A stretch of DNA of 64,000 nucleotides from Myxococcus stipitatus (lineage in GTDB: Bacteria; Myxococcota; Myxococcia; Myxococcales; Myxococcaceae). Every line of letters begins with the position of its first letter. Position 1 is the stretch's first letter. The stretch lies in assembly GCF_038561935.1 (NCBI RefSeq), contig NZ_CP102770.1, positions 8,928,001 through 8,992,000 of the forward strand, read 5' to 3'. Of the stretch, positions 46,629 to 60,311 are shown one piece after another. Below the pieces are notes generated by a model. The model searched no databases. It was given only the letters and a program-made list of their open reading frames with translations, and was not told the DNA's origin. Position numbers and translations under genes: made by a program.

Positions 46629-47507
46629 GTGGTGCTCGACGCCCAGACACTGGCCCGCCTCAAGGGCGTGAAGCTGCGCGCGCGCGCGGTGATGGAAGGC
46701 GTGCTGTCCGGCCTCCACAAGAGCCCTCACCAAGGGCAGAGCGTGGAGTTCGCCGAGCACAAGGAATACGCCCCCGGCGACGAGCTGCGGCACCTCGACT
46801 GGAAGGCCTACGGCAAGTTCGACAAGTACTACGTCAAGCGCTTCGAGCATGAGACGAACCTGCGCTCGGTCATGGTCGTGGATGCGTCCGCCTCCATGGG
46901 CTACACGAGCGGCGCGCTGACGAAGCTGGACGTCGCCACCACGCTGGCCGGAGCGCTCTGCTACCTGCTGGTGCGTCAGCAGGACGCCGCGGGCCTGGCG
47001 CTGCTCACGGGTGGCAAGTGGAAGGACGTGCCGCCGCGCGCGTCCGCGGGCCACCTCAACGTGCTGCTGGACACGCTGGACGCCATGGCGCCGGGCGGAG
47101 GCACGGACCTGGGCAGCGCGGCGGACCACCTGGCGGAGGTGCTGCCCCGGCGCTCCACCGTCATCGTCCTGTCCGACCTGCTGGACGAGAAGCAGGACGC
47201 ACTCAAGCGGGTGCTCGCGCTGCGTCAGCGCAAGAACGACGTGTCGCTGTTCCACATCGTCGACCCGGCGGAGCTGACCTTCCCCTTCGATGACCCCACC
47301 CTCTTCCTGGACATGGAGGGCGAGGGACGGATTGAAGTGAACCCGCGCGAAATCAAGGAGAGCTACCTGGAGGAGTTCAACGCCTTCCTGGCGAGCGTGA
47401 AGGCCTCCTGCGCGGAGGCGGACGTGGACTACGAGCTGGTGCGCACCGACGAGAAGCTGGATGACGTCCTCTTGCGCTACCTGGCCCGGCGCGGGAGGCG
47501 CGGGTGA
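46629..47507 (+). CDS. DUF58 protein with VWA-like domain
   Basis: A 292-residue DUF58 protein. The family signature is the segment PGDELRHLDWKAYGKFDKYY, followed by a VWA metal-binding site (VMVVDASASMGYTSGALT) with DxSxS. It is cytosolic, with no signal peptide. DUF58 proteins are MoxR partners in envelope-related modules. The start is GTG at 46629, six bases after the MoxR stop. Its stop overlaps the GTG of the BatA-like gene, so the three genes are translated together. Confidence 0.93.
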   Translation: MVLDAQTLARLKGVKLRARAVMEGVLSGLHKSPHQGQSVEFAEHKEYAPGDELRHLDWKAYGKFDKYYVKRFEHETNLRSVMVVDASASMGYTSGALTKLDVATTLAGALCYLLVRQQDAAGLALLTGGKWKDVPPRASAGHLNVLLDTLDAMAPGGGTDLGSAADHLAEVLPRRSTVIVLSDLLDEKQDALKRVLALRQRKNDVSLFHIVDPAELTFPFDDPTLFLDMEGEGRIEVNPREIKESYLEEFNAFLASVKASCAEADVDYELVRTDEKLDDVLLRYLARRGRRG

Positions 47508-49606
47508 CGTTCGGCAATCCGTGGATGCTCCTGGGCGCGCTCGGGGCCCTCATCCCCCTGCTGGTGCACCTGTTCGACCGGCGCCGGCCTCGGCCGCACC
47601 CGTTCGGTCCGATGGCCTTCGTGCTGAGGAGCCAGAAGCGCACCGCCAGCCGCCTCAAGCTCAAGCGGCTGCTGCTGTACGCGCTGCGCACGCTCATCCT
47701 GCTGGCCATCCCCATCGCCCTCGCCAGGCCGGAGCTGTCGAGCGACGCACACGCCGCGCAGGTGGTGAAGGGCCCCGCCGCGACGGCCATCATCCTGGAC
47801 GCGTCGCTGTCCATGCGCTGGTCGGATGGCACGTCCCTCTTCGAGCGGGGCCGCGACGAGGCGCGCGACGCGCTGAAGGACCTGCTGCCCGAGGAGCCCG
47901 CCACGGTGCTCGTGTGCACGGGCACGCCCGCCTCACCGCCCACGCCGGGCTTCGACCGGGGCCGGCTGCGAGGAATCGTCGACGAGGCGAAGCCGACGTA
48001 TGGCGGCGCGGACCTGTCGCGGTGCATGGAGATGGCGGCGCGCTCGCTGGAGGAGAACCCGCTGGCGGCCAAGCGGCTGGTGGTGGTCTCCGACATGGCG
48101 GCCACCGCGTTCCGGCTGGAGGCTCCGCCCCCCACGGTGAAGGGCCCCACGGGCACGCTGGTGAAGCCGGAGGTGGTGCTGCGCGACGTGGCCGAGGGGC
48201 GCGATGCGCTCAACAACCACGCGGTGGTGGACCTGAAGGTGGAGCCCGCGCTGCAGGCGGGACCTCGCGCGTTCCAGTTCACCTTCACGGTGCGCAACTT
48301 CGGGACGGAGGCCGCCAAGGACCTGGAGGCCGCGGTGCGCGTGGGCGAGTCGACGCTGGCCAAGGGCTTCGTCGACGTGCCCCCCGGTGGCACCACGCAG
48401 AAGGCCCTGACGGTGCGCTTCCCGCAGGGCGGCACGGTGGTGGGCGAGGTGACGCTCGCGCCGGACGCGCTGGCGGAGGATGACCGGCGCGCGTTCGTGC
48501 TGCCGGTGCCGCGCGCGCTCAAGGCGCTGGTGGTGAACGGCGCGCCCCACGCGACGCGCTACCGGGACGAGGCCTTCTTCGTGGACGCGGCGCTGACGGC
48601 GCCCGGCTCCCCGGTGGAGGTGGCCGTGCGCGATGCCGAGGTCGGGCTGCGCGAGGACTTCTCCACGTACGACCTGGTGCTGCTGCTCAACGTGGCGGCG
48701 CCGACCGAGGAGGAGGCCGCGAAGCTGACGACGTTCGTGGAGAACGGCGGCGGCCTGTTCATCAGCATGGGCGACCGGGTGAACACGGAGGACTACAACC
48801 TCCGGCTCGGCGCGGTGCTGCCCCGGCCGCTGCGCGTGGTGCGCACCAGCGCGGAGCGCGACACGGACCCGGAGGCGGAGACGAAGGCCGCGCGGCTGGC
48901 GCAGGTGAAGCAGGAGCACGTCCTGTTCGCGCCCTTCACGGGCCGCGCGGAGGAAGGGCTCATCGGCGCTCGCTTCTACCGGTACATGCTGCTGGAGGCG
49001 GACAACCCGGCCTCGCCCGGCGCCAGCCAGGTGCTGGCCACGTACGAGGACGGCGCGCCCGCCGTCGCGGTGATGCGCAAGGGCAAGGGCCGCGTGGCCC
49101 TGTTCACCAGCACGGTGGACCGCGACTGGAGCGACTTCGCCATCCGCACCAGCTTCCTGCCGCTGATGCAGCGCTTCGCGGCGTACCTCACCGGCTCGCT
49201 CGAGGAGCGCGAGGAGGTGCGCGTGCGCGTGGGTGAGCAGGTGACGCTGCGGCCGGAGGGCGCACAGAAGGTGTCCGCGGTGCGCGCACCGGACGGCGGC
49301 GAGCTGCCGGTGAAGGTGCAACCGGATGGCTCGGTGGTGGCGGGCCCCGTGCTCGAGCCCGGCGTGCATGCGGTGCTGGGCACGGACGGCAAGCAACTGC
49401 CAGCGCTGTCCTTCGCGGCGGTGCTGGACCCGGCCGAGAGCGACTTGACGCGTGTCCCTCAAGAGACGCTCACCGCGTACTTCGGCGAGGAGACGGTGAA
49501 GGCGTCCAGCGGGGATGAGGACCGTCCGTCCGTGCCGCTGTGGACGTGGCTCATCCTGGCCGCGTGTGTCGCCTTCTTCTTCGAGGGCACGCTCCTGCGC
49601 AAGTAG
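47504..49606 (+). CDS. BatA-like membrane protein with VWA domain
   Basis: A 700-residue membrane protein. The N-terminal BatA segment is MLLGALGALIPLLVHLFDRR, followed by a short basic loop and helix RLLLYALRTLILLAIPIALA. A VWA domain has DASLSMRWSDGTSLF (MIDAS DxSxS). A long periplasmic part contains CARDB/Ig-like segments (FTFTVRNFGTEAAKDLEAAV) and glutamine amidotransferase-like YDLVLLLNVAAPTEEEAAKL, with the last helix SVPLWTWLILAACVAFFFEG. It starts at GTG overlapping the DUF58 stop (GTGA at 47504-47507). Together the three proteins form a MoxR-VWA module at the inner membrane. Confidence 0.9.
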   Translation: MTFGNPWMLLGALGALIPLLVHLFDRRRPRPHPFGPMAFVLRSQKRTASRLKLKRLLLYALRTLILLAIPIALARPELSSDAHAAQVVKGPAATAIILDASLSMRWSDGTSLFERGRDEARDALKDLLPEEPATVLVCTGTPASPPTPGFDRGRLRGIVDEAKPTYGGADLSRCMEMAARSLEENPLAAKRLVVVSDMAATAFRLEAPPPTVKGPTGTLVKPEVVLRDVAEGRDALNNHAVVDLKVEPALQAGPRAFQFTFTVRNFGTEAAKDLEAAVRVGESTLAKGFVDVPPGGTTQKALTVRFPQGGTVVGEVTLAPDALAEDDRRAFVLPVPRALKALVVNGAPHATRYRDEAFFVDAALTAPGSPVEVAVRDAEVGLREDFSTYDLVLLLNVAAPTEEEAAKLTTFVENGGGLFISMGDRVNTEDYNLRLGAVLPRPLRVVRTSAERDTDPEAETKAARLAQVKQEHVLFAPFTGRAEEGLIGARFYRYMLLEADNPASPGASQVLATYEDGAPAVAVMRKGKGRVALFTSTVDRDWSDFAIRTSFLPLMQRFAAYLTGSLEEREEVRVRVGEQVTLRPEGAQKVSAVRAPDGGELPVKVQPDGSVVAGPVLEPGVHAVLGTDGKQLPALSFAAVLDPAESDLTRVPQETLTAYFGEETVKASSGDEDRPSVPLWTWLILAACVAFFFEGTLLRK

Positions 49607-49653
49607 TGCCCATTCGAGCTAGCACGAACGTGTGACTCCCTGACGCGGGGAGG

Positions 49654-49672
49654 GGTCGGCACCTTGCCGACC
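49654..49672. promoter_or_regulatory. 19-bp inverted repeat upstream of the six-gene cluster
   Basis: GGTCGGCA-CCT-TGCCGACC is an 8-bp perfect dyad with a 3-bp centre, 47 bases after the BatA-like stop and 34 bases before the next ATG. Its spacing fits a dimeric repressor or activator site for the downstream cluster; a short hairpin terminator is the alternative, though a 3-base loop is tight. Confidence 0.5.
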
Positions 49673-49706
49673 ACAAGACAACGCCCGCGGATGCAGTGGG
49701 GGGGAC

Positions 49707-50882
49707 ATGACGAGCGCCGAATTCCTGTCCGGGGAGAGCTTCGAGTCAGTCGAAGCCATGGACGCATTCCTCGAGAGCGACGAGTGGGAGGACGCCTTCG
49801 AGGAGCTGGAGGCGTTCGCCGATGAATGGGGAGAGCTCGACGGCTTCGAGGACGGCTTCGACGAGGACCTGGACGCGGAAGGCGACGGCTTCGAGGACGC
49901 GCTGGAAGCGTTCGAGGAGGACGACGGCTTCGAGGGCTTCGCGCGGAGCCCCACGAGCGGACTCTTCCTGCCCACCGCCGCGCCCCGGCTGGTGAGCGGA
50001 CCGGCGGCCGTCGCGCTCGCCCGAGGGCTCAACCCTTTCGTGCTCGAGTCGATGGACGCCGATGACGCGGAGGCCTTCTTCCGCCGCATCGCCCGAGGCA
50101 TCCGCGGCGCGGTGCGCACGGCGGGACGGGTGGCGAGGGGCGTGGGTCGCGTGGCCCGGACGGTGGGACGCGTGGCCGCGCCGCTTGTGCGCCGGGCGCT
50201 CCCCATCATCCAGCGCGTGGCCAGCGTCGCGGGGCCGTGGGGGCGCGTCGTCTCGGCGGGCATCGGCGCCGCGCGAGGGCTGATGGAAGGCCGAGGACTC
50301 CGCGGTGCGCTCGCGGGCGCCGTGGGTGGACTCATCCCGGGGGTGGGGGGACGCATCGCCTCGTCCATCCTTCGCGGAGATGGGGCGGATGACGACGCCT
50401 CGCTGGACGCGCTCGCGGACATGGCGGACGCGCGGCAGGTGCCCGCCGCCGTGGCGCTCCCGCTGGGCGCGGGGCTCGCGACGCGGGTGGTGAGCCGGCA
50501 GGCGGTGCGGCCGGGCACTCCGCTCGGGGCCGCGGCGCAAGGGGCGCTTCGGGCTCGGGCTCGCGCGGTGGAGCAGACGTTGATTCGTTCGGCCCTGCGC
50601 ATGCCGGGGAACATGGGCCAGCGCTTGCGGCTCATGCGCGGCATCGCCCAGCGGGCCGCGCGGCTCCTGCGCCAGCGCGACACGGCCCAGGCCATCCAGC
50701 TCATCCCCCGCGCGGTGAGAGGCGCCAGCCAGCAGGTGCTCGCGCGGGTCGCCCGAGCGCCCTCGCTGGGGGCCCTCTCCCCGGCCACCGCGGCGCGGCG
50801 GGTGGTGGCGCGCCAGCAGGTGCTCCGCCGTCTGCCCGTGGCCACGCTCGCCGCGGCGAGTGCACGCCAGGCCTACGCCTGA
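49707..50882 (+). CDS. Acidic-head/basic-tail hypothetical protein A
   Basis: A 391-residue protein that I cannot place in a named family. Residues 1-80 are extremely acidic and aromatic (SDEWEDAFEELEAFADEWGE, DGFEDGFDEDLDAEGDGFED). Residues about 125-215 are strongly basic with glycine/alanine-rich amphipathic helices (RTAGRVARGVGRVARTVGRV, LRGALAGAVGGLIPGVGGRI). The rest is Arg/Ala-rich helix (AAQGALRARARAVEQTLIRS). There is no signal peptide. The head-to-tail charge asymmetry suggests self-association or masking of a membrane- or nucleic-acid-binding region by the acidic head. It is followed by a paralogue with the same plan. G-rich sequence precedes the ATG, and an inverted repeat lies 34 bases upstream. 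Confidence 0.72.
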   Translation: MTSAEFLSGESFESVEAMDAFLESDEWEDAFEELEAFADEWGELDGFEDGFDEDLDAEGDGFEDALEAFEEDDGFEGFARSPTSGLFLPTAAPRLVSGPAAVALARGLNPFVLESMDADDAEAFFRRIARGIRGAVRTAGRVARGVGRVARTVGRVAAPLVRRALPIIQRVASVAGPWGRVVSAGIGAARGLMEGRGLRGALAGAVGGLIPGVGGRIASSILRGDGADDDASLDALADMADARQVPAAVALPLGAGLATRVVSRQAVRPGTPLGAAAQGALRARARAVEQTLIRSALRMPGNMGQRLRLMRGIAQRAARLLRQRDTAQAIQLIPRAVRGASQQVLARVARAPSLGALSPATAARRVVARQQVLRRLPVATLAAASARQAYA

Positions 50883-50936
50883 AGACGGGCCCCGGAACGC
50901 GCAGTCCATGCAGTGCCCCAATCGAGGAGGAAAGTG

Positions 50937-51980
50937 ATGCAGCAGCCTTTCGAGGAGGAGTTCTCGGACCAGGGGGACGGCATGTCCGACCTGCTGGCCG
51001 AGGGGGAAGAGGGCTTCGAGGACGGCTTCGAGGGCGAAGGCTTCGAGGCCGAGGGCTTCGAGGGTGAAGGCTTCGAGGCGGAGGGGTTCGAGGGCGAGGG
51101 CTTCGAGAGCGACGGCTTCGAGGCGGAAGGCTTCGAGGGAGAGGGCTTCGAGGGCGACGAGGCGCCCCAGACGCTGGAGGGCTTCGAGGACGGCTTCGAG
51201 GGCGAGGGCTTCGAGAGCGACGAGGCGCCCCAGGCGCTCGAGGACGCCTTCGCGGAGGCCATGGACGCCCACGACGAGGACGAATTCCTCCGGCGCCTGG
51301 GCGGTGCGATTCGGCAGGTGGCGCGGGTGGCGGGCCCCACGCTGCGGCGCATCGGCCGGCGCGCGCTGCCCATCGGCATGCGGCTGTTGCGGCAGGCCGC
51401 GCCCCAGCTCGGCGGCATCGCGGGCCAGGAGATTGGCCGCACCGTGGCGGGGCTGCTCCAGGCGGACGCGATGGATGCGTACGCGGACGCGGCGGCGGAC
51501 TACGCCACCGAAGAGGACATGGATGCCTTCACGGCGGTGCTCGGGGGCCTGGCGGCGCGCAGCGTGGTGCGCCGCACGATTCCTCCCGCGCGCCGCGCGC
51601 AGCAGTCGCGTCAGGTCCGCCAGTTGGGACGGGCCATCGGCCGCCTCACGTCGCGGCTCGCCAGACAGCTGGTCAACCGCTATGGCCCTCGCGCGCTGAC
51701 GGCGGTGCCGCGCATCGTGAATCAGGTGACGCGCATGGTCCGCGAGCAGGGCGCAAGTCCCCAGGCCGTGCCGCGCATGCTCCGGCGCACGGGCAACCGC
51801 GTGGTGTCGAGCCCTCCGGCGGTGCGCCGGCTGGCGCGTCCCAACCCCGCGGCGAGGCGGCTGCGCTCGCAGGCGGGAGTCGGCCGCCCCGCGCGGCGCC
51901 CGGCGGCACGGCCCACGGGTGGGCGGACGCCGCGCACCGTCACCCTTCGCGCACCGGTCCGCCTCATCGTGAGGAGATGA
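50937..51980 (+). CDS. Acidic-head/basic-tail hypothetical protein B
   Basis: A 347-residue paralogue-like partner of the preceding protein. The head is almost entirely GFE[G/A/D]E pentapeptides (about 15 units), then a short linker (APQALEDAFAEAMDAHDEDE). The tail is Arg-rich helix (GAIRQVARVAGPTLRRIGRR, RQLGRAIGRLTSRLARQLVN) ending with Arg-rich, Pro/Ala sequence. No signal peptide or known domain is present. The ATG at 50937 is preceded by GAGGAGG eight bases upstream. It follows protein A by 54 bp and precedes the protease-like gene by 31 bp, consistent with one operon. A structural or cargo-binding role is possible; nothing here proves it. Confidence 0.72.
   Translation: MQQPFEEEFSDQGDGMSDLLAEGEEGFEDGFEGEGFEAEGFEGEGFEAEGFEGEGFESDGFEAEGFEGEGFEGDEAPQTLEGFEDGFEGEGFESDEAPQALEDAFAEAMDAHDEDEFLRRLGGAIRQVARVAGPTLRRIGRRALPIGMRLLRQAAPQLGGIAGQEIGRTVAGLLQADAMDAYADAAADYATEEDMDAFTAVLGGLAARSVVRRTIPPARRAQQSRQVRQLGRAIGRLTSRLARQLVNRYGPRALTAVPRIVNQVTRMVREQGASPQAVPRMLRRTGNRVVSSPPAVRRLARPNPAARRLRSQAGVGRPARRPAARPTGGRTPRTVTLRAPVRLIVRR
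51009..51231 (+). repeat. 15-bp coding repeat (GFE-x-E)n
   Basis: About 14 consecutive units of GGCTTCGAGGGCGAG type encode Gly-Phe-Glu-x-Glu, strongly biased to the same codons, which suggests recent expansion or unit-to-unit homogenisation. Confidence 0.85.
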
Positions 51981-52011
51981 GCCACTCGGAGGGGTGAGGG
52001 GTGGGGGGCAT

Positions 52012-53319
52012 ATGGCCGACGCGCTGAACCGTTTCCTGCGAGCCAAGATTCGCGGCCTGTCCTTCCGGGCGGGACGGCTGTGCTCGCTGACGCCCAGGGA
52101 AGTGGGCATCCGGCCCCAGGACGTTCCCTATGCCCCCTCCACCGCGCACTTCGCCGCGGCCAACACCCGGCTGCGGGAGATTGACGCGGGCGTGCGGCGA
52201 GCACTCACGCGGCTGGAGGAGGACGCACGACGGCCCGTGCTCCACGCCCAGCGGGTGTTGCACCACGCGGCGCTGGTGGAGCGGGAGATAGACCGGGCCC
52301 GCCGCGCCTTCGGCCTCTTCTTCGACATCTTCAGCCAGCGAGGCACCCGCTTCGCCTCGGCGCTGGCCGCGTGTGATGTCATCGCCGCGGATTGCTTCCA
52401 GGTGGTGCGAAGAAGCGCGCCGGGCCTGCTGGGCCCTCCGCTGCTCAAGCCCGTCACGTACCTGGAGCACAGCTTCTCTCCGGCGACCTTCCGGCGCGGC
52501 GTGCTGCTGCGCAGGCTGCTGGGCGAGCGGAATCCCTTTCCGCTCATCCGCGTCCCCTATGAGCGCATCGAGGCGCCGTGGGGCATGGGCGTGGTGCTGC
52601 ATGAGATTGGCCACAACCTCCAGGCGGACCTGGGCATCTGGAACGAGACGCAGGCCGCGTTGCAGCGACGGGTGCTCGGCGTCACCGGAGACCCGTGGCT
52701 CACGCGGCTGTGGGGGCGCTGGCACAAGGAGATCTTCGCGGACCTGGTGGCGTGCCTCCTCGGGGGCCCCGCCTCCGTGCATTCGATGAAGGACTTCCTC
52801 GCGTATCCCGCCGCGCGCGTGCTGACCTTCCATCCGTTGAGCGTGCACCCCACGCCCTACGTCCGCGTGCTCATCCAGGCGGAGATGTTGCAGCGCATGG
52901 GCTTTCCCGAGCGGGCGCGCGACGTGCGCGGCAACTGGACCCGGCTCTACGGCGGACAGCTGGCGCGCTCGCGCATCCCCGCGCGGCTGTTGCAGTCGTC
53001 CGCGAGGGTGATTCCGCACGTGGTGGATGAGGTGTGCTTCCAGCCACGGCGAGGGCTGGCGCAGCACGCGCTCGTGGACGTGGTGCCGTTCGGTGCCGAG
53101 GACCAGCGGCGGATTCTTCGGGGCGCGCGGGAGCTGGCGCGGGGACGGGTGCCTTCGTGGCTGCCTCCGCGATTCACGGTGAGCGCCAGCCGCGAGGCAC
53201 TCGAGCGGGGGCTGGCTCCAGCGGCGAGCATCTCCCAGACGGTGCTGGCGCGGCTCACGCAGCTGGGCGCGAGGGATTGGGTGGAGCAGCCGAGCGCGGC
53301 ATCGGTCATGGCGGCATGA
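52012..53319 (+). CDS. Zinc metallopeptidase-like protein (HEIGH motif)
   Basis: A 435-residue protein with an HExxH zinc site: VVLHEIGHNLQAD (His197, Glu198, His201). A second segment HKEIFADLVACLL supplies a candidate third ligand, Glu240, in an E-x3-D arrangement common in gluzincins. The sequence before it is helical and positively charged, without a signal peptide; I see no known named peptidase family. The neighbours suggest that it processes or matures the acidic-head proteins, but that is inference. The ATG at 52012 follows a G-rich ribosome-binding region. The next gene begins 20 bases after its stop, so an operon is likely. Confidence 0.78.
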   Translation: MADALNRFLRAKIRGLSFRAGRLCSLTPREVGIRPQDVPYAPSTAHFAAANTRLREIDAGVRRALTRLEEDARRPVLHAQRVLHHAALVEREIDRARRAFGLFFDIFSQRGTRFASALAACDVIAADCFQVVRRSAPGLLGPPLLKPVTYLEHSFSPATFRRGVLLRRLLGERNPFPLIRVPYERIEAPWGMGVVLHEIGHNLQADLGIWNETQAALQRRVLGVTGDPWLTRLWGRWHKEIFADLVACLLGGPASVHSMKDFLAYPAARVLTFHPLSVHPTPYVRVLIQAEMLQRMGFPERARDVRGNWTRLYGGQLARSRIPARLLQSSARVIPHVVDEVCFQPRRGLAQHALVDVVPFGAEDQRRILRGARELARGRVPSWLPPRFTVSASREALERGLAPAASISQTVLARLTQLGARDWVEQPSAASVMAA

Positions 53320-53339
53320 GGACTTGAGGGGGACGAACG

Positions 53340-55232
53340 ATGGATGACCAGACGAGGAGTCGCGGCGGCGCGGTGCCGATGGAGCTGGCCTCGACGGCCA
53401 GGACGCGCTTCGACGAGTTCCTGCGCCGGCAGCTCGGCATCTCCGACGCGAGAGACCCGCTGCAGGTGGTGGGCGCGCTGCGCAAGCTGTATCCCTCCAC
53501 GGCCTCGCGGTTGGACGAGGAGGCGAAGGGGCTCTCCATCCGCTTCAACGAAGCGCCCCTGCCCTCGTCGACGAGTGTCGTCAGCTCCGGAGAGACGCCG
53601 GGCATGGCGCAGTACCGCAGGCTCCGGAGCGCGCTGGAGGCGGACCTCACGCTGCTCGCGGAGCACCCGTCCAACCGCGAGTTCAAGGGCGCGCTCATCG
53701 GCTGGCGCGACGCCACGCTCGCGGAGCTGGCCGAAGGGCTCGACTCCGCGGAGCAGGCCGCGGACCCGTCGCGGCGGGACAGGGCGTTCTATTCCGTGCG
53801 AAAGCTGGGCAACTACGCCTACGTCGCGCGCAAGGTGGGGCTGCTCAATCCGGACCTGAGCCAGGAGTACCGCCGGCTCGCCTCCACGCTGGACGCCGCC
53901 GCCATGGTGCTGCGGGTGCGCGTGGGCGAGGGGCTCTATCAAGCCGGCTTCGCCGAGGGAGGCACCGTCTTCGAGGTCGCCCTCGCGGACCTGCGTCAGC
54001 GACGAGAGGCACTCATCGCCTCGCTGGAGCGCCTGACGTCCGGCACCTCCGAGGACAGCGACGACTGGGGTGATGGCGAGGCGTCCTACGGCACGCTGCA
54101 GGACGAGCTGACCCAGCAAGGCCATCACGACCTGCGCGCCATGCTGAACCCGGTGAACATGGCCCGGCAGCTCGACCTGCTGTTGAACAACGTCGTCTCG
54201 CAGGCGCCGGAGTCCATCCAGGAGATTGCCGCCACCGCGCCCGTGGAGCTCACGCACCTCAAGCGGCTGCGCGACGTGGCCGCGCGAGTGGTGTCGGGAG
54301 GTGAGGGCTCGGCCATGGCGGCGTCGGCGCCGCTGAGCGCCTTCGTCCAGCGGCTCAACCTCTTCATCGAGGCCTTCGCCCAACCAGGCGCCGCGGCCCG
54401 CGTGTTGGACCTGGCGCTCCCCTACCCCTTCGCCACGCCGCAGCTCAGCCGCGTGGACACCGAGGGACGCGCCGCGGTGCGAGAGCTCATCCGCCGACGC
54501 GCGGAGTGCGCGGCGGAGCTGGATGCCCTCTTCGCGGACCCCGACTTCGACCCGGTGGATGAGGAGTCCTTCGTGCGGCTCGACCGGGTGCTCTACGACA
54601 TCGACCGGGCCACGGACCTCTACCTGATGGGCAGTGGCACGCGCTCCATGCCCGGCGGCGAGGAGAAGCGCGCGGCCCTGTACGCGGGGGTGCTGGAGGT
54701 CTGGATCCGCTCCTTCCCGCAGCAGGCGGTGACCTCTCCGGGCCAGCGCGTAGTGCAGCACCTGGAGGCGCTGCGCCTCCTGCTCCAGCTGAAGACCTTC
54801 CCGTCGCCCGCGGAGGTGCGGCAGTTCCTCGTGGAGCAGCGGAACCTGGAGCTGGAGTGGAACCAGCTCGCCCTCCAGTTCTCGCGCACGGGAGAGAATC
54901 GGAAGGCCCTGCTGGAGGTGCCCCTGGCCCTCTACGCCTGGGTGCCCCTCCCCGCCCCCGGGACCCCGCTGGCCGCGCAGGTGCCGCCCGCCGTGCGCGT
55001 GTCCGCGGACCGCATCGCCGACGTCATGGAGGTCTTCGCGGAGCGGGTGGAATCGGAGCCACGCCCCGAGCCCGCTCCTCCACCCGACGGACCTCGGCGC
55101 GGGGCCGCGCCCACCGTGCGCCGCCAGCGAGGAGGCCCGCGCAAGCAGGGCAAGCCCCGGAGCACGGCACCCTCGAGAGGCAAGCCCAAGGCCCCCAAGT
55201 CCAAGACCGATGAGTCCGGCCAGTTCCACTGA
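53340..55232 (+). CDS. Large helical hypothetical protein with basic tail
   Basis: A 630-residue protein that is almost all alpha-helical, with no signal peptide. Recurring helical segments are FDEFLRRQLGISDARDPLQV, RRLRSALEADLTLLAEHPSN, YRRLASTLDAAAMVLRVRVG and SVRKLGNYAYVARKVGLLNP. Residues about 600-630 form a strongly basic Lys/Arg/Pro tail (GGPRKQGKPRSTAPSRGKPK) that may bind nucleic acid or an acidic partner. I recognise no domain. It lies 20 bp after the protease gene and 48 bp before the next gene in the same cluster. The acidic heads of the two upstream proteins would be natural partners for this basic tail; this is inference. Confidence 0.72.
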   Translation: MDDQTRSRGGAVPMELASTARTRFDEFLRRQLGISDARDPLQVVGALRKLYPSTASRLDEEAKGLSIRFNEAPLPSSTSVVSSGETPGMAQYRRLRSALEADLTLLAEHPSNREFKGALIGWRDATLAELAEGLDSAEQAADPSRRDRAFYSVRKLGNYAYVARKVGLLNPDLSQEYRRLASTLDAAAMVLRVRVGEGLYQAGFAEGGTVFEVALADLRQRREALIASLERLTSGTSEDSDDWGDGEASYGTLQDELTQQGHHDLRAMLNPVNMARQLDLLLNNVVSQAPESIQEIAATAPVELTHLKRLRDVAARVVSGGEGSAMAASAPLSAFVQRLNLFIEAFAQPGAAARVLDLALPYPFATPQLSRVDTEGRAAVRELIRRRAECAAELDALFADPDFDPVDEESFVRLDRVLYDIDRATDLYLMGSGTRSMPGGEEKRAALYAGVLEVWIRSFPQQAVTSPGQRVVQHLEALRLLLQLKTFPSPAEVRQFLVEQRNLELEWNQLALQFSRTGENRKALLEVPLALYAWVPLPAPGTPLAAQVPPAVRVSADRIADVMEVFAERVESEPRPEPAPPPDGPRRGAAPTVRRQRGGPRKQGKPRSTAPSRGKPKAPKSKTDESGQFH

Positions 55233-55280
55233 CGTGCGGCCCTCTCCATCCATCAACGCAAAGCAGCCAGGTGGTGCGCC

Positions 55281-56384
55281 ATGAGTATCGGCACTTCGGA
55301 ATCCCTTCAGCGCCTCTTCGCGCAATGGAAGCGAGAGGTCCTCGCCCAGGCTCAGCCCGAGCACCGGGCCGAGCTGCAACGACAACTCCAGCAGCGAGAG
55401 GAGGAGCTCCTCGCGAAGGCCGCCAACGGCACGGCGGGCGCGGCGTTCTCCGACCTCATGGGCCTGGGCAAGGACGGAGCTCCTCCCTTCGAGTCCATCA
55501 GCAAGCCGGTGCTCGTCCAGGACTTCGACGAGTCCGTCATCCAGACGCAGCTCCACGCGGCGGCGGAGCTCTACTTCATCTACCAGCACGAGCGGATGAA
55601 GGTGTTCCAGGTCGCCGGCGTCCTGCTGCGCCTCTTCCATGACGGCCGCATCCGCATCCAGCGCGGCCCGGGCGCCCGCGCGCTCTACCTGATGGAGAAG
55701 CACCAGCCGCTCCGCTACAAGCCCCGGGACCGGCAGCTCGCGTACCGGCGCGCGTTCAACTACGGCTCGCTGACCGCGCCGCGCGGCGCCGTGGTGTTCC
55801 GCAACTTCCACCGCGAGTTCATCGCCTTCACCTCCGCCATCGCGCAGTACTTCCGAGACCTCCTCATCGGCGAGGTCATCCGAGGCTCGCAGTCCCTCAA
55901 CGAGCGGCCCTTCGCGAGCCAGGCCACCATCCAGCGCCTGGGCGCGGACATGCGCTGGCAATTGGACCGGGCCACCTACGGCAACATCGTGGCCCTCACG
56001 GTGGAGGCCGCCGAGTACCTCAAGACCATCCTCGACGCGCTCGAGTGCGCGGACATCAAGAAGGCCTTCGACGCCAACACGAAGTGGGACGTCATCGAAG
56101 TCGTCTCGCAGCGCTACCTCGGGGGGACGGGCGAGATTTCGCAGCGCTCGAAGATGGCGGACGCGGGGCGGCTGCTCCTCAACTTCGCGGCGGACAATCC
56201 CTTCAAGACGCGAGACTTCAGGGACTTCCAGACGGAGGTCTCCCCCTTGGGCCCCGTGGCCGAGGAGTGGATCGCCGCCTACCGGATGACCCCCAACGGC
56301 CGCAGCTTCCGCGGCGTCACGCCCACCCTGCGCACCACACTGGGCATCCCCGGCGCGGGGGCCTCCCGAGACCTGGCCTCCTGA
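55281..56384 (+). CDS. Helical hypothetical protein of the cluster
   Basis: A 367-residue protein. The N-terminus is a long amphipathic helix (QRLFAQWKREVLAQAQPEHR, LQRQLQQREEELLAKAANG). The middle is rich in Phe and Tyr with a strand-helix pattern (AAAELYFIYQHERMKVFQVA, GVLLRLFHDGRIRIQRGPGA, PRGAVVFRNFHREFIAFTSA), followed by further helices (NIVALTVEAAEYLKTILDAL). No signal peptide and no recognised motif. It lies 48 bp after the previous gene and 12 bp before the DUF4438 gene, all in one direction. Its function is unknown. Confidence 0.7.
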   Translation: MSIGTSESLQRLFAQWKREVLAQAQPEHRAELQRQLQQREEELLAKAANGTAGAAFSDLMGLGKDGAPPFESISKPVLVQDFDESVIQTQLHAAAELYFIYQHERMKVFQVAGVLLRLFHDGRIRIQRGPGARALYLMEKHQPLRYKPRDRQLAYRRAFNYGSLTAPRGAVVFRNFHREFIAFTSAIAQYFRDLLIGEVIRGSQSLNERPFASQATIQRLGADMRWQLDRATYGNIVALTVEAAEYLKTILDALECADIKKAFDANTKWDVIEVVSQRYLGGTGEISQRSKMADAGRLLLNFAADNPFKTRDFRDFQTEVSPLGPVAEEWIAAYRMTPNGRSFRGVTPTLRTTLGIPGAGASRDLAS

Positions 56385-56396
56385 CGCGCGCCCTCC

Positions 56397-57353
56397 ATGG
56401 ACCTCGACTTCGAGCAGCAGCCCGTCGCCGAAGCGGGAGCAAGGCCGCGAGGCACTCCACGCACCAACGTGGACAGGCTCGTCGCGGTGGCGGTCGCGGG
56501 CCAGGTGGCCCACCCCATCATCCGAGCCAATCCCTATCGCATGGGCCGCGACGGCGTGCCTCGGCTCCTGCCGGGCAGTGGAGGCATCGTCCTCAACCGC
56601 CGGGTGGGTGACCCGGCCGTGGGGCTCGCGGGAGACCACGTGGAGGCGGGCGTCTCGCTCCACAACAACGGGCGCGAGGTGGTGGGTCCGCCGGATGGGC
56701 CCAACCGGGCGCTGATGTTCTACTCCTGCGTGGGCAACCGGGCGCGCGTCCTCAATGGCGCGGCGGTGGGCTCGGTGGGCACCGTGGTGGGGAAACACGG
56801 CGGCATCAACCACGTCATCGTGGACTTCCCGCCTCGGGTGAAGCGGCGGCTGGCCATCGGCGACAGGATTCAGATTGAAGCGCACGGGCAAGGCCTGACG
56901 CTGCCCGGCCATCCCTCCCTGAGCGCGCTCAACCTCTCTCCAAGACTCCTGCGACGCTGGGGCGTGAGGACCGAGGGAAAGCGGCTGCACGTCCCCATCA
57001 CCCACTTCGTCCCCGCGCGCATCATGGGCTCCGGCTTCGGGCGCTCCGAGGGCGTGCTGGGAGACCTGGACATCCAGCTGTCGGATGCGCGCGTGCGCCG
57101 CCGCTATCGCTTGGAGTCCCTGCGGTTGGGAGACCTCGTGGCCATCTGCTCGCTGGACTACCGCTTCGGCCCCTCCGCGCGCCCCGGCGCGGTGACGGTC
57201 GGCGTGGTGGTGCACTCGGACAGCCACATCGCCGGGCACGGGCCGGGCGTGACACCGCTGCTGATGGGGCCCGTCGCGAGCTTCCACCTCGTCCGCGAGC
57301 CCCGCGCGAACCTCGCGTGGGTGCTGGGACTGAGGCTTCGCCCCGGCGTCTGA
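56397..57353 (+). CDS. DUF4438 domain protein
   Basis: A 318-residue protein matching the DUF4438 pattern from memory: NVDRLVAVAVAGQVAHPIIR, VPRLLPGSGGIVLNRRVGDP, AVGLAGDHVEAGVSLHNN and GTVVGKHGGINHVIVDFPPR. Later family segments include MGSGFGRSEGVLGDLDIQLS and VVVHSDSHIAGHGPGVTPLL. The DUF4438 family has no established activity; the glycine-rich loops and repeated His/Asp residues suggest an enzyme fold. It is the last gene of the six-gene cluster, 12 bases after the previous stop, and converges on the LuxR-type regulator with only a few bases between. Its role in the cluster is unknown. Confidence 0.8.
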   Translation: MDLDFEQQPVAEAGARPRGTPRTNVDRLVAVAVAGQVAHPIIRANPYRMGRDGVPRLLPGSGGIVLNRRVGDPAVGLAGDHVEAGVSLHNNGREVVGPPDGPNRALMFYSCVGNRARVLNGAAVGSVGTVVGKHGGINHVIVDFPPRVKRRLAIGDRIQIEAHGQGLTLPGHPSLSALNLSPRLLRRWGVRTEGKRLHVPITHFVPARIMGSGFGRSEGVLGDLDIQLSDARVRRRYRLESLRLGDLVAICSLDYRFGPSARPGAVTVGVVVHSDSHIAGHGPGVTPLLMGPVASFHLVREPRANLAWVLGLRLRPGV

Positions 57354-57361
57354 CGACGCCC

Positions 57362-57754
57362 TCAGTCCGCCGAGGCCCCGAAGCAGCGCGACACCATCGC
57401 CGCGCGCGTGTCCACGCCCAGCTTGGCGAAGATGCGCCGCAGGTGCGCGGAGACGGTCCACGAGCTGATGGACAGCTCGGTGGCGATCTCCTTGTTCACC
57501 CGGCCCGCGGCCACCAGCGCCACCACCTGCAGCTCGCGCGTGGTGAGCAGCCCGTTGCCCGTGAAGGACGCGGGGAGCTCCTCCTTCGGAGGCGCGGGAA
57601 CGGGAGGCGGCACCTCACCGTCCGACGGCACGGGCACCAGCTGATAGCGGCGGCCGTCGAGGATGAGCTCGGCGGAAGGGCCCGCCACCCCATCGAGCGA
57701 GGGCGTCGGCAGGACGAGCAGCACATGGCTTCCAGGAGGCAGCGGTCGTGACAT
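57362..57754 (-). CDS. LuxR-type helix-turn-helix regulator
   Basis: A 130-residue protein with a C-terminal LuxR/GerE helix-turn-helix: LLTTRELQVVALVAAGRVNK, EIATELSISSWTVSAHLRRI and FAKLGVDTRAAMV. The first ~60 residues form a short beta-rich region (MSRPLPPGSHVLLVLPTPSL, ELILDGRRYQLVPVP), too short to be a receiver or PAS domain, then a Pro-rich linker. The ATG at 57754 is preferred over the longer frame, whose extra residues look non-coding. Because it converges with the DUF4438 gene and follows the next minus-strand gene by 16 bp, it may be co-transcribed with that gene. A regulator so near the cluster is a candidate regulator of it. Confidence 0.82.
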   Translation of the reverse strand: MSRPLPPGSHVLLVLPTPSLDGVAGPSAELILDGRRYQLVPVPSDGEVPPPVPAPPKEELPASFTGNGLLTTRELQVVALVAAGRVNKEIATELSISSWTVSAHLRRIFAKLGVDTRAAMVSRCFGASAD

Positions 57755-57770
57755 GGCGAACCCCGAGCAG

Positions 57771-58835
57771 CTACCGCGCGGACACCCCATCCAGCTCGGG
57801 CGAGGACACGATGCGCCGGACCTCCCCCGCCTCGCGCGCATGCCCCGAGGACCGCAGCGCACTGGCGAAGCGCAGCCCCGCGCGCACGCTGCCCCCGGCC
57901 GCGCCCGCCTCTTCGCGCAGGAGCGCGTCGAACCGCGAGACACCTCGACGTCCCAACCTCAGCTCCGCGTGCCACCGCAGGGCGAACACGCGCGGCGAGT
58001 CCTCTCCCGTGAGCGCCAATGACGGCTCGACCAGACACGCGACCTGCCCCAACCGCGCCCCCTTCTCCCGCCCCGCACGCACCAGCGCCGCGAACAACAG
58101 CGGGTCTTCACCGAGCAGCGCGAGCGCCTGGCGCCCCTGCACCCACTGCCCCGTCGTCACGTCCACGACCGCCAGCGCGGGCGACTCAGGGCTTTCACCT
58201 ACGACCCTGATTCCCAAGGTTCCGAGCCGCGCCTCGAACGTCGCGGGCTCCAGCCGCTTCCAACACGCCAGGGCATGCACGAGTGCATCACCGGAGAAAG
58301 ACCACACCCCCCAGCTCGGCCCGGCGCCCGCCGCGTCGAAGGGTGCGCCGAACCACGCGAGCACGAACTCCAAGCCCTGTGCGCTCGTGGCGCTCACGCC
58401 CAGACGGCCCCACTCCTCGCGCGAAAGCGCACAGGGCCCTCGCACCGCCACGGTGCCTCGGTGCACCAACTGGCCCTGCTCGCGCGCCAGCAGCACGGGA
58501 GCACTGTCCTCGGGGAAGAGCACCCCCAGCCCCTGGACGCGAGGGCGCGCACGCGCCGAGCGCACCTCGTCCGCCGTGGTGGGCGCTCGTTCCTGGACGT
58601 TCTCGCGCGGCTCGCTCGCCGGAGTGGAATGCTCCGTTGCAGGTGGAGGCTCGTCGAACAGCGGAGGCTGCTCGGGCACGATGCGATTGGGAGGAGCGGA
58701 AGGAGACTCGGGGCTCTTGTCGGACCAGGGGCCACCTCGCTCGAGGTCCGAGACCCATCGGTCCAGGAGCGCCTCGAGACCTTCGGTGGACACCGGGGGA
58801 CGCGAACCCTTGCGCTCGGAGTCGTGCACTGACAC
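57771..58835 (-). CDS. Hypothetical cytosolic protein
   Basis: A 354-residue protein with no signal peptide. The first ~90 residues are charged and Pro/Ser-rich. Two related ~130-residue alpha/beta segments follow (LGVLFPEDSAPVLLAREQGQ, HRGTVAVRGPCALSREEWGR; LGTLGIRVVGESPESPALAV, VDVTTGQWVQGRQALALLGE). The C-terminal part has FAALVRAGREKGARLGQVAC, then HAELRLGRRGVSRFDALLRE. I recognise no family. The GTG at 58835 is preferred, with GGAGG six bases upstream. It precedes the LuxR-type gene with a 16-bp gap on the same strand, suggesting a two-gene unit. Function unknown. Confidence 0.7.
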   Translation of the reverse strand: MSVHDSERKGSRPPVSTEGLEALLDRWVSDLERGGPWSDKSPESPSAPPNRIVPEQPPLFDEPPPATEHSTPASEPRENVQERAPTTADEVRSARARPRVQGLGVLFPEDSAPVLLAREQGQLVHRGTVAVRGPCALSREEWGRLGVSATSAQGLEFVLAWFGAPFDAAGAGPSWGVWSFSGDALVHALACWKRLEPATFEARLGTLGIRVVGESPESPALAVVDVTTGQWVQGRQALALLGEDPLLFAALVRAGREKGARLGQVACLVEPSLALTGEDSPRVFALRWHAELRLGRRGVSRFDALLREEAGAAGGSVRAGLRFASALRSSGHAREAGEVRRIVSSPELDGVSAR

Positions 58836-58928
58836 GGAGGACCTCCACACCCAAGAGGGGAACGTCTGTCGAACCTAGGGGGGCCTCCGTGAATCGCATC
58901 CTGCCCACGAGCAGGACGGCAGTGCGTG

Positions 58929-60311
58929 TTACCGCACCCGCTCTATCTTGTGCTTGCGCCCCTTGATGCGGCCCTCACTCAAGCGCTGGAAGGCCACGCG
59001 CACCACGCGCCGCGCGACGGCGACGTAGGAGATGTGGTCCTGGATTTCAATCTTGCCCACGTCCGTCGCGGCGAAGCCTCCCGCCTCGCCCGTCAGCGCG
59101 CCGAGGATGTCGCCAGGCCGCATCTTGTCCTTGCGACCCGCGGAGATGTAGAGCGTCTCCCACTCGGAGCCGAGCGCACCGGCCTTCGCGGCCGTCGCCT
59201 CCAGCGCCGCCGCGTCGCCCGCCTCCAGCTTCACGCCGAGCGCCTGCTCAATCTCCTCCACCTTGCGCTCATCGCGCGGCGTCACCAGGGAGATGGCCAG
59301 GCCCGTGCGCCCCGCGCGTCCCGTGCGCCCGATGCGATGCACATAGGGCTCCGGCTGGAAGGGCATGTCGAAGTTGATGACGGCGTCGAGCGCCTCCACG
59401 TCGATGCCTCGTCCCGCCACGTCCGTGGCCACGAGCACGCGGGTGCTGAGGTTGCGGAACTTCGCCATGACGCGGTCCCGCTCGAACTGCTCCAGGTCGC
59501 CCTGGAGTCCGTCCACGCTGACGCCGCCGTCCGCGAGCGACTTCGTCAACTCCTGCACTGTTGCCTTGTGATTGCAGAAGACGATGGCGGAGGCGGGCAG
59601 GTGGTGGCGGAGGACCTTGAGCAGCACCGCGGGCTTGTCCTCGGGCGCGGCGTCGTAGCGGACCTGGCGGATGGGCGGCGCGGCCTCGGTGTCCTCCACC
59701 TTCACGCGCACCGGGTCCTTCTGGAACGTGCGGCTCAGGGCCGCGATGTCCGGCGGGAAGGTCGCGGAGAAGAGCACCGTCTGCCGGCGCGGCGGCAGCG
59801 CCCCCAGGATGTGCTCCATGTCCTCGCGGAAGCCCATGTCGAGCATCCGGTCCGCCTCGTCCAGCACCACCGTGGCCAGCCGCTTCGTCTCCAGCGCGTC
59901 GCGCCCCAGCACGTCCATCACCCGGCCCGGCGTCCCCACCGCGATGTGCGCGCCCTTCTCCAGCGCATCGAGCTGCGGACGGATGGGCTGGCCTCCCGCG
60001 AGCACCAGCACCTGGAGCCCCGGCATGCGCCGGCCCAGCTTGCGAATCTCTCCGGCGACCTGCGCGCACAGCTCGCGCGTGGGGCACAGCACCAGGGACT
60101 GGACGCGCCGGTCCTGGAGCTGGACCTTGCGCAGCAGGGGCAGCGCGAACGCGGCCGTCTTGCCGCTGCCGGTGCGCGCCTGGCCGACCAGGTCCTTGCC
60201 CTCCAGGAGGACGGGGATGCTCTGCGCCTGGATGGGCGTGGCCGTCTGGAAGCCCAGCTCCCCCAGGACCTGGAGCAACGGAGGAGTCAGTGAGAGCGCG
60301 GCGAAATCCAT
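58929..60311 (-). CDS. dbpA: DEAD-box ATP-dependent RNA helicase DbpA
   Basis: A 460-residue DEAD-box helicase. Q motif: FQTATPIQAQSIP; motif I: ARTGSGKTA; Ia: PTRELCAQVA; II: VVLDEADRMLDMGF; III: FSATFP; IV: AIVFCNHKATVQEL; V: LVATDVAGRGIDVEALD; VI: VHRIGRTGRAGRTG. The last ~75 residues (KDKMRPGDILGALTGEAGGF, FQRLSEGRIKGRKHKIERVR) are the DbpA-specific RNA-binding domain, which binds 23S rRNA hairpin 92. The helicase therefore acts in late 50S ribosome assembly. Length agrees with the E. coli protein (457). A single-gene unit; the start at ATG 60311 is clear. Confidence 0.95.
   Translation of the reverse strand: MDFAALSLTPPLLQVLGELGFQTATPIQAQSIPVLLEGKDLVGQARTGSGKTAAFALPLLRKVQLQDRRVQSLVLCPTRELCAQVAGEIRKLGRRMPGLQVLVLAGGQPIRPQLDALEKGAHIAVGTPGRVMDVLGRDALETKRLATVVLDEADRMLDMGFREDMEHILGALPPRRQTVLFSATFPPDIAALSRTFQKDPVRVKVEDTEAAPPIRQVRYDAAPEDKPAVLLKVLRHHLPASAIVFCNHKATVQELTKSLADGGVSVDGLQGDLEQFERDRVMAKFRNLSTRVLVATDVAGRGIDVEALDAVINFDMPFQPEPYVHRIGRTGRAGRTGLAISLVTPRDERKVEEIEQALGVKLEAGDAAALEATAAKAGALGSEWETLYISAGRKDKMRPGDILGALTGEAGGFAATDVGKIEIQDHISYVAVARRVVRVAFQRLSEGRIKGRKHKIERVR

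What the first reader, a model, noticed from the sequence alone, without database searches (positions are those of the whole stretch)
49707..57353. Six-gene cluster of unknown function with acidic/basic paired proteins, a protease and DUF4438
Seen: six same-strand genes with gaps of 12-54 bp encoding two paralogue-like acidic-head/basic-tail proteins, an HEIGH protease-like protein, two unrecognised helical proteins (one with a Lys/Arg tail) and a DUF4438 protein. Nothing matches a described pathway that I know. Inference: the acidic heads could mask the basic, glycine-zipper tails until the protease releases them, or could bind the basic tail of the large helical protein. Possible roles are a secreted or membrane-active effector, a predation tool or a self-assembling particle.
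Basis: partly seen in the sequence, partly recalled or inferred. Interest (0 to 1): 0.82.

Follow-up and report, generated by a model that had tools for sequence, protein, structure and literature searches.

The report
Mobile cross-phylum acid-base protein cassette
A block of eight genes in a myxobacterium belongs to an undescribed gene set that is kept in the same order in cyanobacteria, proteobacteria and a planctomycete, and that looks like a protease-armed weapon or particle built around proteins that are acidic at one end and basic at the other.

Summary
The six genes at 49707-57353 exist as described; among them only DUF4438 passes a Pfam cut-off. Two more genes belong to the block: a LuxR-type regulator (57362-57754, -) and an unknown protein (57771-58850, -). 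The block 49607-58928 lies between a BatA/vWA gene and dbpA; in one cassette-less relative these two adjoin (52 bp), and in four more they lie 0.9-1.4 kb apart. One gene order, [acid/base protein x1-3] > metalloprotease > P0004 > P0005 > (F6) > DUF4438 > LuxR, holds across 31 loci from myxobacteria, cyanobacteria, proteobacteria and Kuenenia, save three loci cut by contig ends, one displaced regulator and one broken copy; F6 is missing from the 10 myxobacterial ones. All 18 acid/base proteins tested have an acidic head and basic core and tail; 16 hold a significantly amphipathic cationic stretch. Peptidoglycan enzymes lie beside some cassettes and cousins, some on plasmids. Best reading: a horizontally moving antibacterial toxin module in which a metalloprotease matures self-masked cationic proteins. 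The module is solid; the mechanism is inferred (about 0.4). No paper in the library names DUF4438.

The parts
49607..58928 (.). Whole block: eight genes between the BatA/vWA gene (47504-49606, +) and dbpA (58929-60311, -)
   Evidence: In cassette-less same-genus genome G093 (L191) the dbpA homologue begins 52 bp after the BatA/vWA match; in four more (L193, L196, L197, L207) it lies 0.9-1.4 kb away, too close for the block; in the other 19 of 24 no dbpA match lay within the 1.5 kb held
49707..50882 (+). P0001, acidic-head/basic-tail protein (family F2)
50937..51980 (+). P0002, acidic-head/basic-tail paralogue (family F2); longest ORF from 50913, probable start ATG 50937
52012..53319 (+). P0003, HExxH...E..AD protein, probable zinc metalloprotease (family F3); longest ORF from 51994
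53340..55232 (+). P0004, helical protein without a recognised fold (family F1)
55281..56384 (+). P0005, helical protein without a recognised fold, most conserved member of the block (family F0)
56397..57353 (+). P0006, DUF4438 protein (family F5)
57362..57754 (-). LuxR/GerE-type regulator, about 130 aa (family F4), convergent with P0006
   Evidence: (longer ORF 57362-57943), GerE E 5.8e-16; relatives beside DUF4438 in the other loci
57771..58850 (-). P0012, unknown protein (family F7) that travels with the block in Myxococcaceae; start uncertain
   Evidence: 10 Myxococcaceae loci, the window included; no Pfam match

Best explanation
The block is the myxobacterial version of a horizontally moving gene module that makes a regulated antibacterial toxin or effector apparatus. 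Proposed working: the LuxR-type protein switches the operon on. The F2 proteins (P0001, P0002) are made latent, their acidic head neutralising a cationic amphipathic core and a basic tail. The metalloprotease P0003 cuts or reshapes them. P0004 and P0005 form a helical scaffold that holds or exports F2 and, in some relatives, extra cargo with acidic heads such as peptidoglycan hydrolases. Freed cationic F2 then disrupts or crosses a target envelope. Shown: gene order, conservation, charge layout, metalloprotease motif, presence or absence as a block, envelope-acting genes beside some relatives. Inferred: masking, cleavage of F2 by P0003, assembly, export, target.
For: One order over 31 loci in four phyla (30 of 31 keep P0003 > P0004 > P0005 on one strand; the exception is cut by a contig end). 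Strong purifying selection, P0005 omega 0.022-0.027 in two same-genus comparisons. All 18 F2 proteins tested: head -20 to -58, core and tail positive; 16 of 18 more amphipathic than shuffles at p < 0.05. HExxH/E..AD invariant in 20 of 20 proteases. Peptidoglycan enzymes beside canonical cassettes: VanY in L113, DUF2272 and Peptidase_M74 in L125; beside relatives: Peptidase_M15 plus PG_binding in L182, Amidase_2 in L133 near a P0003 relative. Remote P0005 relatives on plasmids share a cluster with an S8 peptidase and a peptidoglycan-binding protein (Tolypothrix) or an amidase (Burkholderia pyrrocinia); L026 has a subtilase too. Patchy carriage: 13 of 99 genomes of the order, one of them the remote G030; 7 of 386 cyanobacteria, of which 2 canonical. 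A sister version (F2, F2, P0003, a sister-type protein in P0004's place, P0005, LuxR) lies on a 2.4-Mb Paraburkholderia replicon typed as a mobilizable plasmid.
Against: No strong signal-peptide-like or transmembrane stretch is evident in the six proteins (hydropathy only), and no secretion genes were recognised among them. No immunity gene was identified. The shared N-terminal domain of the peptidoglycan-hydrolase cargo occurs in only 2 of 20 canonical non-myxobacterial carrier genomes (both supplied the profile) and 1 of 59 Myxococcaceae, not in the window's genome. No toxin domain passes a cut-off in P0001 or P0002. F7 is not shown to be an effector; its suspected likeness to the endolysin-like protein of L026 failed (hhalign probability 0.7%). 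Selection is mostly constraint, not the diversification expected of an arms-race toxin; only P0004 is fast (omega 0.09, 0.39, 0.71 and 0.76 in four comparisons).
Confidence: 0.4

Rival explanations
1. A cell-autonomous defence or suicide module working like a bacterial gasdermin: the F2 proteins are autoinhibited membrane-disrupting proteins of the producer, and the protease releases them when a phage or stress is sensed; P0004, P0005, F6 and DUF4438 are sensors.
For: Protease next to a self-masked cationic amphipathic protein; no evident export signals; patchy distribution and a plasmid-borne sister version.
Against: No meaningful PADLOC match for the seven block proteins scanned (F7 was not) or for F6 (P0002 to a reverse transcriptase model at E 0.0014, and the LuxR HTH to CARF and CasR models). 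Peptidoglycan enzymes beside relatives fit outward use better.
Confidence: 0.22
2. A self-assembling particle or compartment: acidic heads and basic tails drive co-assembly of F2 with helical shell or scaffold proteins P0004 and P0005; the protease trims the assembly as a prohead protease does.
For: Head and remaining charge go together (r = -0.87); the two parts of P0001 cancel; two conserved all-helical proteins without recognised fold; gene order conserved.
Against: No significant match to phage families (PHROGs best E 0.16-0.36) and no solved-structure match at E <= 0.001 for P0004 or P0005. A particle alone does not explain neighbouring peptidoglycan enzymes, though it could carry them.
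Confidence: 0.22
3. A nucleic-acid-binding module (protamine-like Arg-rich tails compacting DNA or RNA, with F6 as a possible nuclease), acting in development or mobile-element biology.
For: 45 Arg in each basic part; F6 has invariant Asp residues that by eye recall PIN nucleases.
Against: The Arg/Lys are arranged in amphipathic stretches, more than shuffles in 16 of 18; F6 is missing from all 10 myxobacterial loci, and the two members scanned have no Pfam match.
Confidence: 0.06
4. An ordinary housekeeping or metabolic operon that merely lacks annotation.
For: Strong purifying selection; DUF4438 also occurs in Thermotoga maritima, 1 of 14 control genomes.
Against: Present in a minority of genomes, present or absent as a block, with plasmid-borne relatives.
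Confidence: 0.1

Closest known systems
Polymorphic toxin systems (Zhang et al. 2012, PMC3482391; passages found by word search)
   Same: Patchy loci with a peptidase and modular toxin-like or peptidoglycan-degrading proteins; two F2 copies (L110:3562, L111:5208) seem by eye to hold an extra segment in the head.
   Different: No recognised trafficking domain, no immunity gene found, a fixed core of families in fixed order, and an acid/base protein as the central player. None of the 8 passages shown for 'acidic' and related words describes such heads; the paper was not read whole.
Bacterial gasdermins (recalled, no call)
   Same: A protease beside an autoinhibited membrane-active protein.
   Different: No sequence or fold relation was tested; masking here would be electrostatic, and the module has further conserved proteins and outward-looking neighbours.
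DUF4438 family (PF14505/PF20999; TM1086, PDB 3n99, 3dcl)
   Same: P0006 is a full-length member.
   Different: The solved member is an uncharacterised Thermotoga protein; in Myxococcaceae DUF4438 was found only with this block or its remnant in G074 (7 of 59 genomes).
Phage-derived or contractile injection particles (recalled)
   Same: Mobile multi-gene modules with scaffold-like proteins, a protease and peptidoglycan enzymes.
   Different: No significant tail or capsid match among the six proteins (PHROGs) and no such family among ten proteins of the L026 cluster (Pfam).

Membership tests
DUF4438 | Both Pfam domains over the curated cut-off | tested here: met
   PF14505 175.2 bits (cut-off 24.9), PF20999 138.5 bits (27)
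HExxH metalloproteases (gluzincin-like) | HExxH with a downstream candidate third ligand | tested here: met
   HE..H and HKE..AD invariant in 20 of 20; by sequence only
HExxH metalloproteases (gluzincin-like) | Match to a described peptidase family | tested here: not met
   At E <= 1 only six families match one or two of 20 members, best E 0.031; no useful PDB match by profile
Polymorphic toxin systems | Variable C-terminal toxin domains on a shared N-terminus | tested here: inconclusive
   VanY (L113), DUF2272 and M74 (L125) on one shared N-terminal domain, but only 2 of 20 carrier genomes
Polymorphic toxin systems | Cognate immunity gene | not tested
   No systematic search was made; none was recognised
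Polymorphic toxin systems | Known trafficking domain or secretion system partner | tested here: not met
   No such domain in the six proteins (Pfam, NCBIfam, PHROGs)
Anti-phage defence systems | Match to a known defence family | tested here: not met
   PADLOC, seven of eight block proteins; only HTH-level and composition-level matches
Bacterial gasdermins | Gasdermin fold and protease-cleaved C-terminal inhibitory end | not testable with these tools
Contractile injection or phage particles | Tail, sheath or capsid families in the block | tested here: not met
   PHROGs best E 0.16-0.36 for the six proteins; LuxR and F7 not scanned with PHROGs

The most novel reading that the evidence does not exclude
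An undescribed class of mobile bacterial weapon, shared by at least four phyla, in which acidic heads serve both to mask cationic membrane-active carrier proteins and to tag cargo such as peptidoglycan hydrolases for a helical P0004/P0005 scaffold, and a dedicated metalloprotease arms the assembly.
Probability: 0.3. Interest if true: 0.93.

Novelty: categorically new. Interest (0 to 1): 0.8.

Why it matters
A multi-gene module kept in order over myxobacteria, cyanobacteria, proteobacteria and a planctomycete, with no name that I could find, is unusual. Of its seven families in the window (eight genes), five pass no Pfam cut-off; the others are DUF4438 and a generic LuxR-type DNA-binding domain. 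If it is a toxin or particle system, it adds a weapon to predatory myxobacteria and bloom-forming cyanobacteria such as Microcystis. It also gives a directly testable hypothesis (electrostatic masking, proteolytic release) and places DUF4438, a solved structure without function, in a genetic context.

Tried and rejected
Structure: AlphaFold models of P0005 (pLDDT 77.7, pTM 0.68) and P0004 (72.2, 0.59) gave no Foldseek match at E <= 0.001; best VIA-align Z 5.1 for P0005 and 6.4 (talin R7R8) for P0004, within what helical models give by chance. A missing match does not show new folds. Solved-structure searches for P0003, P0005, P0004 and F2 gave nothing useful.

Deep homology: P0005 against the 'WHEEGML' proteins next to P0003-like proteases (L133-L135, L137) is only suggestive (hhalign E 0.0024, probability 12%); against the L131 protein probability 2%. 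P0004 against those proteins, or against its positional counterpart in the sister cyanobacterial loci, failed, as did P0004 against P0005. F2 against the FE-rich sister proteins succeeded (97.9%, E 3.4e-13); against the small acidic proteins of L132, L135 and L137 it is weak (45%, E 0.00022). F7 against the endolysin-like L026 protein failed.

Dropped rows and limits: weak matches of P0005 in G139 and G159 were not confirmed (no hit in L057, L058) and are not counted as carriers. L116 (cassette cut at a contig start) and L129 (a copy of L026) were left out of the order tally. The 18 F2 proteins are those of alignment A10, picked by me; divergent or enlarged copies (such as L107:2419, L110:3562, L111:5208, L125:4013) and most Corallococcus copies were not among them. 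The scan used two short peptide patterns, so its 29 loci are a lower bound. No P0005 relative was found in phages or viral contigs. A genome-contig scan with P0004 found nothing. Nuclease-like readings of several neighbours (L108:11937, L110:4816, L121, L123, L124, L132, L135, L137) and the PIN-like reading of F6 are by eye only; those scanned had no Pfam match over its cut-off, and L121 and L123 were not scanned. The genus of the window (probably Myxococcus) is inferred, not named by any search; Corallococcus is named. Paper searches: listings only; passages of one paper by word search.

Full report
OBSERVATION. The six ORFs are real and lie as described. Among Pfam, NCBIfam and PHROGs only P0006 gets a significant match, to DUF4438. 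Two likely start corrections: P0002 at 50937 and P0003 at 52012. The acidic-head/basic-tail layout of P0001 and P0002 is far beyond shuffled sequence (0 of 2000 for each).

THE BLOCK IS BIGGER. Convergent with DUF4438 lies a LuxR/GerE-type regulator (57362-57754, -), and then an unknown gene F7 (57771-58850, -) that accompanies the cluster in 10 Myxococcaceae loci, the window included. Of 27 same-genus genomes, 3 carry the cassette and 24 do not. In one of the 24 (G093) the upstream BatA/vWA gene is followed after 52 bp by dbpA, the gene beyond F7 in the window. In four more (G094, G146, G087, G078) a dbpA match lies 0.9-1.4 kb away, with other sequence between. In the remaining 19 no dbpA match lay within the 1.5 kb held. 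So 49607-58928 behaves as one unit of presence or absence, shown exactly in one genome. Carriage is patchy: P0005 in 13 of 99 genomes of the order, one of them the remote G030. In the phylum it is 19 of 195 by profile, of which 16 canonical, one remote (G030) and two unconfirmed. DUF4438 in the family (7 of 59 genomes) is found only in carriers and in G074, which holds a remnant.

THE SAME CASSETTE IN OTHER PHYLA. A scan of a collection of 84,980 species genomes with the P0005 alignment returned 29 loci: Myxococcaceae, cyanobacteria (Microcystis, Leptolyngbya, Lyngbya, Acaryochloris, Phormidesmis and others), Kuenenia, Lysobacter, Pseudomonas, Chromatiales and marine alphaproteobacteria, at 53-63% identity outside myxobacteria. 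Profile-based mapping of 31 loci (L116 and L129 left out) gives F2-F2-P0003-P0004-P0005-DUF4438-LuxR in 10 of 10 myxobacterial loci, with LuxR on the other strand. In the 21 others the order is F2(1-3)-P0003-P0004-P0005-F6-DUF4438-LuxR. The departures are three loci cut by contig ends (L119, L120, L127), L126, whose LuxR gene sits upstream on the other strand, L113 with extra LuxR copies, and L125, where reading frames of the core genes are split. F6, about 290 aa, is found in 20 of 21 non-myxobacterial loci (the exception is cut) and in none of the 10 myxobacterial ones. All 20 non-myxobacterial carrier genomes searched hold F2 (weakest best E 3.7e-8), by coordinates mostly at the cassette; G201 has one more on a second contig. 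The P0005 tree has a firm myxobacterial clade (100/100) and weakly resolved inner branches, so direction of transfer is open.

THE ACID/BASE PROTEINS. Across 18 F2 proteins picked for alignment A10 the head carries -20 to -58, the following 60 residues +5 to +22, and the rest +11 to +35. In 16 of 18 the best 18-residue stretch after the head is more amphipathic than shuffles of the same residues (p < 0.05; 1000 shuffles each). Head and remaining charge correlate (r = -0.87; related sequences). Many end in a short strand-like motif with G-P-V (P0002: A-P-V). Profile comparison joins F2 to the glutamate/phenylalanine-rich proteins of a sister cassette in cyanobacteria (97.9%, E 3.4e-13, over the core and not the head).

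THE PROTEASE. HE(I/V)..H and HKE..AD are invariant in their key residues in 20 of 20, yet no described peptidase family or solved structure matches convincingly. Relatives number 28 of 193 genomes of the phylum: 17 canonical, the G074 remnant, and 10 more remote ones.

SISTERS AND COUSINS. Four cyanobacterial genomes (L181-L184) hold a sister version with P0003 and P0005 relatives in the same order, three of the four with recognisable F2-like proteins. A Paraburkholderia replicon typed as a mobilizable plasmid holds F2, F2, P0003, the sister-type protein in P0004's place, P0005 and LuxR. A third type couples a longer P0005-like protein to a subtilase and 'FVSSLI' proteins: L026, a Tolypothrix plasmid and a Burkholderia pyrrocinia plasmid. 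Peptidoglycan-acting genes recur beside these and beside two canonical cassettes (in L026 only a sub-threshold PG_binding match). Several such cargo proteins carry acidic heads: 52 of 618 ORFs examined have a 60-residue stretch of net charge -14 or less near the start, 27 of them in the main F2 cluster. This points towards antibacterial use, but in the canonical type such cargo was recognised in only 2 of 20 genomes, and none is recognised in the window.

SELECTION. Against G084, omega is 0.022-0.135 for the six genes, with P0005 the most constrained (0.022). P0004 is slow there (0.09) but the fastest elsewhere: 0.39 against G062 and 0.71-0.76 against more distant relatives. Its C-terminal 60 residues are basic in all 11 myxobacterial proteins compared and net negative in 17 of 18 others, so this end may bind something that differs between lineages.

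MECHANISM. I commit to a regulated antibacterial toxin or effector module with self-masked cationic F2 proteins matured by P0003 (0.4), with a gasdermin-like suicide module and a self-assembling particle as the main rivals (0.22 each). These overlap in practice: a particle could be the delivery form of a toxin. What is established is the module; every mechanistic step is inference.

NOVELTY. The library holds no paper with the word DUF4438, and the seven papers naming TM1086 appear from their titles to concern other things, except one on crystallisation (listing). Searches for the pattern by words gave nothing apt in their listings. Most subscription papers, and bioRxiv preprints, are not covered.

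Noticed in passing
L026:2627-17077 (also L129), L216:5590-13251, L217:716-16456: A related but distinct cluster type: subtilase, long P0005-like protein, 'FVSSLIxGVFQxIVD' proteins (five in L026, four in L217, one in L216) with no Pfam family over its cut-off in the L026 copies, and a peptidoglycan amidase or peptidoglycan-binding protein on the Burkholderia pyrrocinia and Tolypothrix plasmids.
   Followed up: partly
L132-L135, L137: Myxobacterial loci with a remote P0003-like protease; four of them (L133-L135, L137) have a protein with the motif 'WHEEGML.Q..N.IS.RFQN', and several a small acidic-headed protein and a PLP-enzyme-like gene (by eye); perhaps a further branch of the same world.
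   Followed up: partly
L131:2437-9034: Compact variant in a 5.3 Mb relative: long protein with an acidic start, HEAGH protease, a P0005-like protein by eye only (hhalign probability 2%), then an acidic-headed protein with the effector-type domain.
   Followed up: partly
L138 and L139: Remnants of the cassette (F2 and protease fragments in G074, F2 fragment in G095), suggesting decay as well as gain.
   Followed up: no
L113:9410-14549: In an Acaryochloris MAG, two genes with a shared acidic N-terminal domain (one VanY, one without Pfam match) lie downstream of the cassette, followed by two further LuxR-type copies, as if cargo units carried their own regulators.
   Followed up: no
L114, L119, L121, L122, L124 and L123: A trypsin-like protease gene (L114, L119, L121, L122, L124; Pfam checked in L114) and a methyltransferase gene (L119, L122-L124; Pfam checked in L122) lie near DUF4438 in some proteobacterial cassettes and, the protease, in Kuenenia.
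   Followed up: no
L114:15134-15571: A 145-aa protein with an extreme acidic head and basic tail just downstream of the Kuenenia cassette, like a miniature F2 protein.
   Followed up: no
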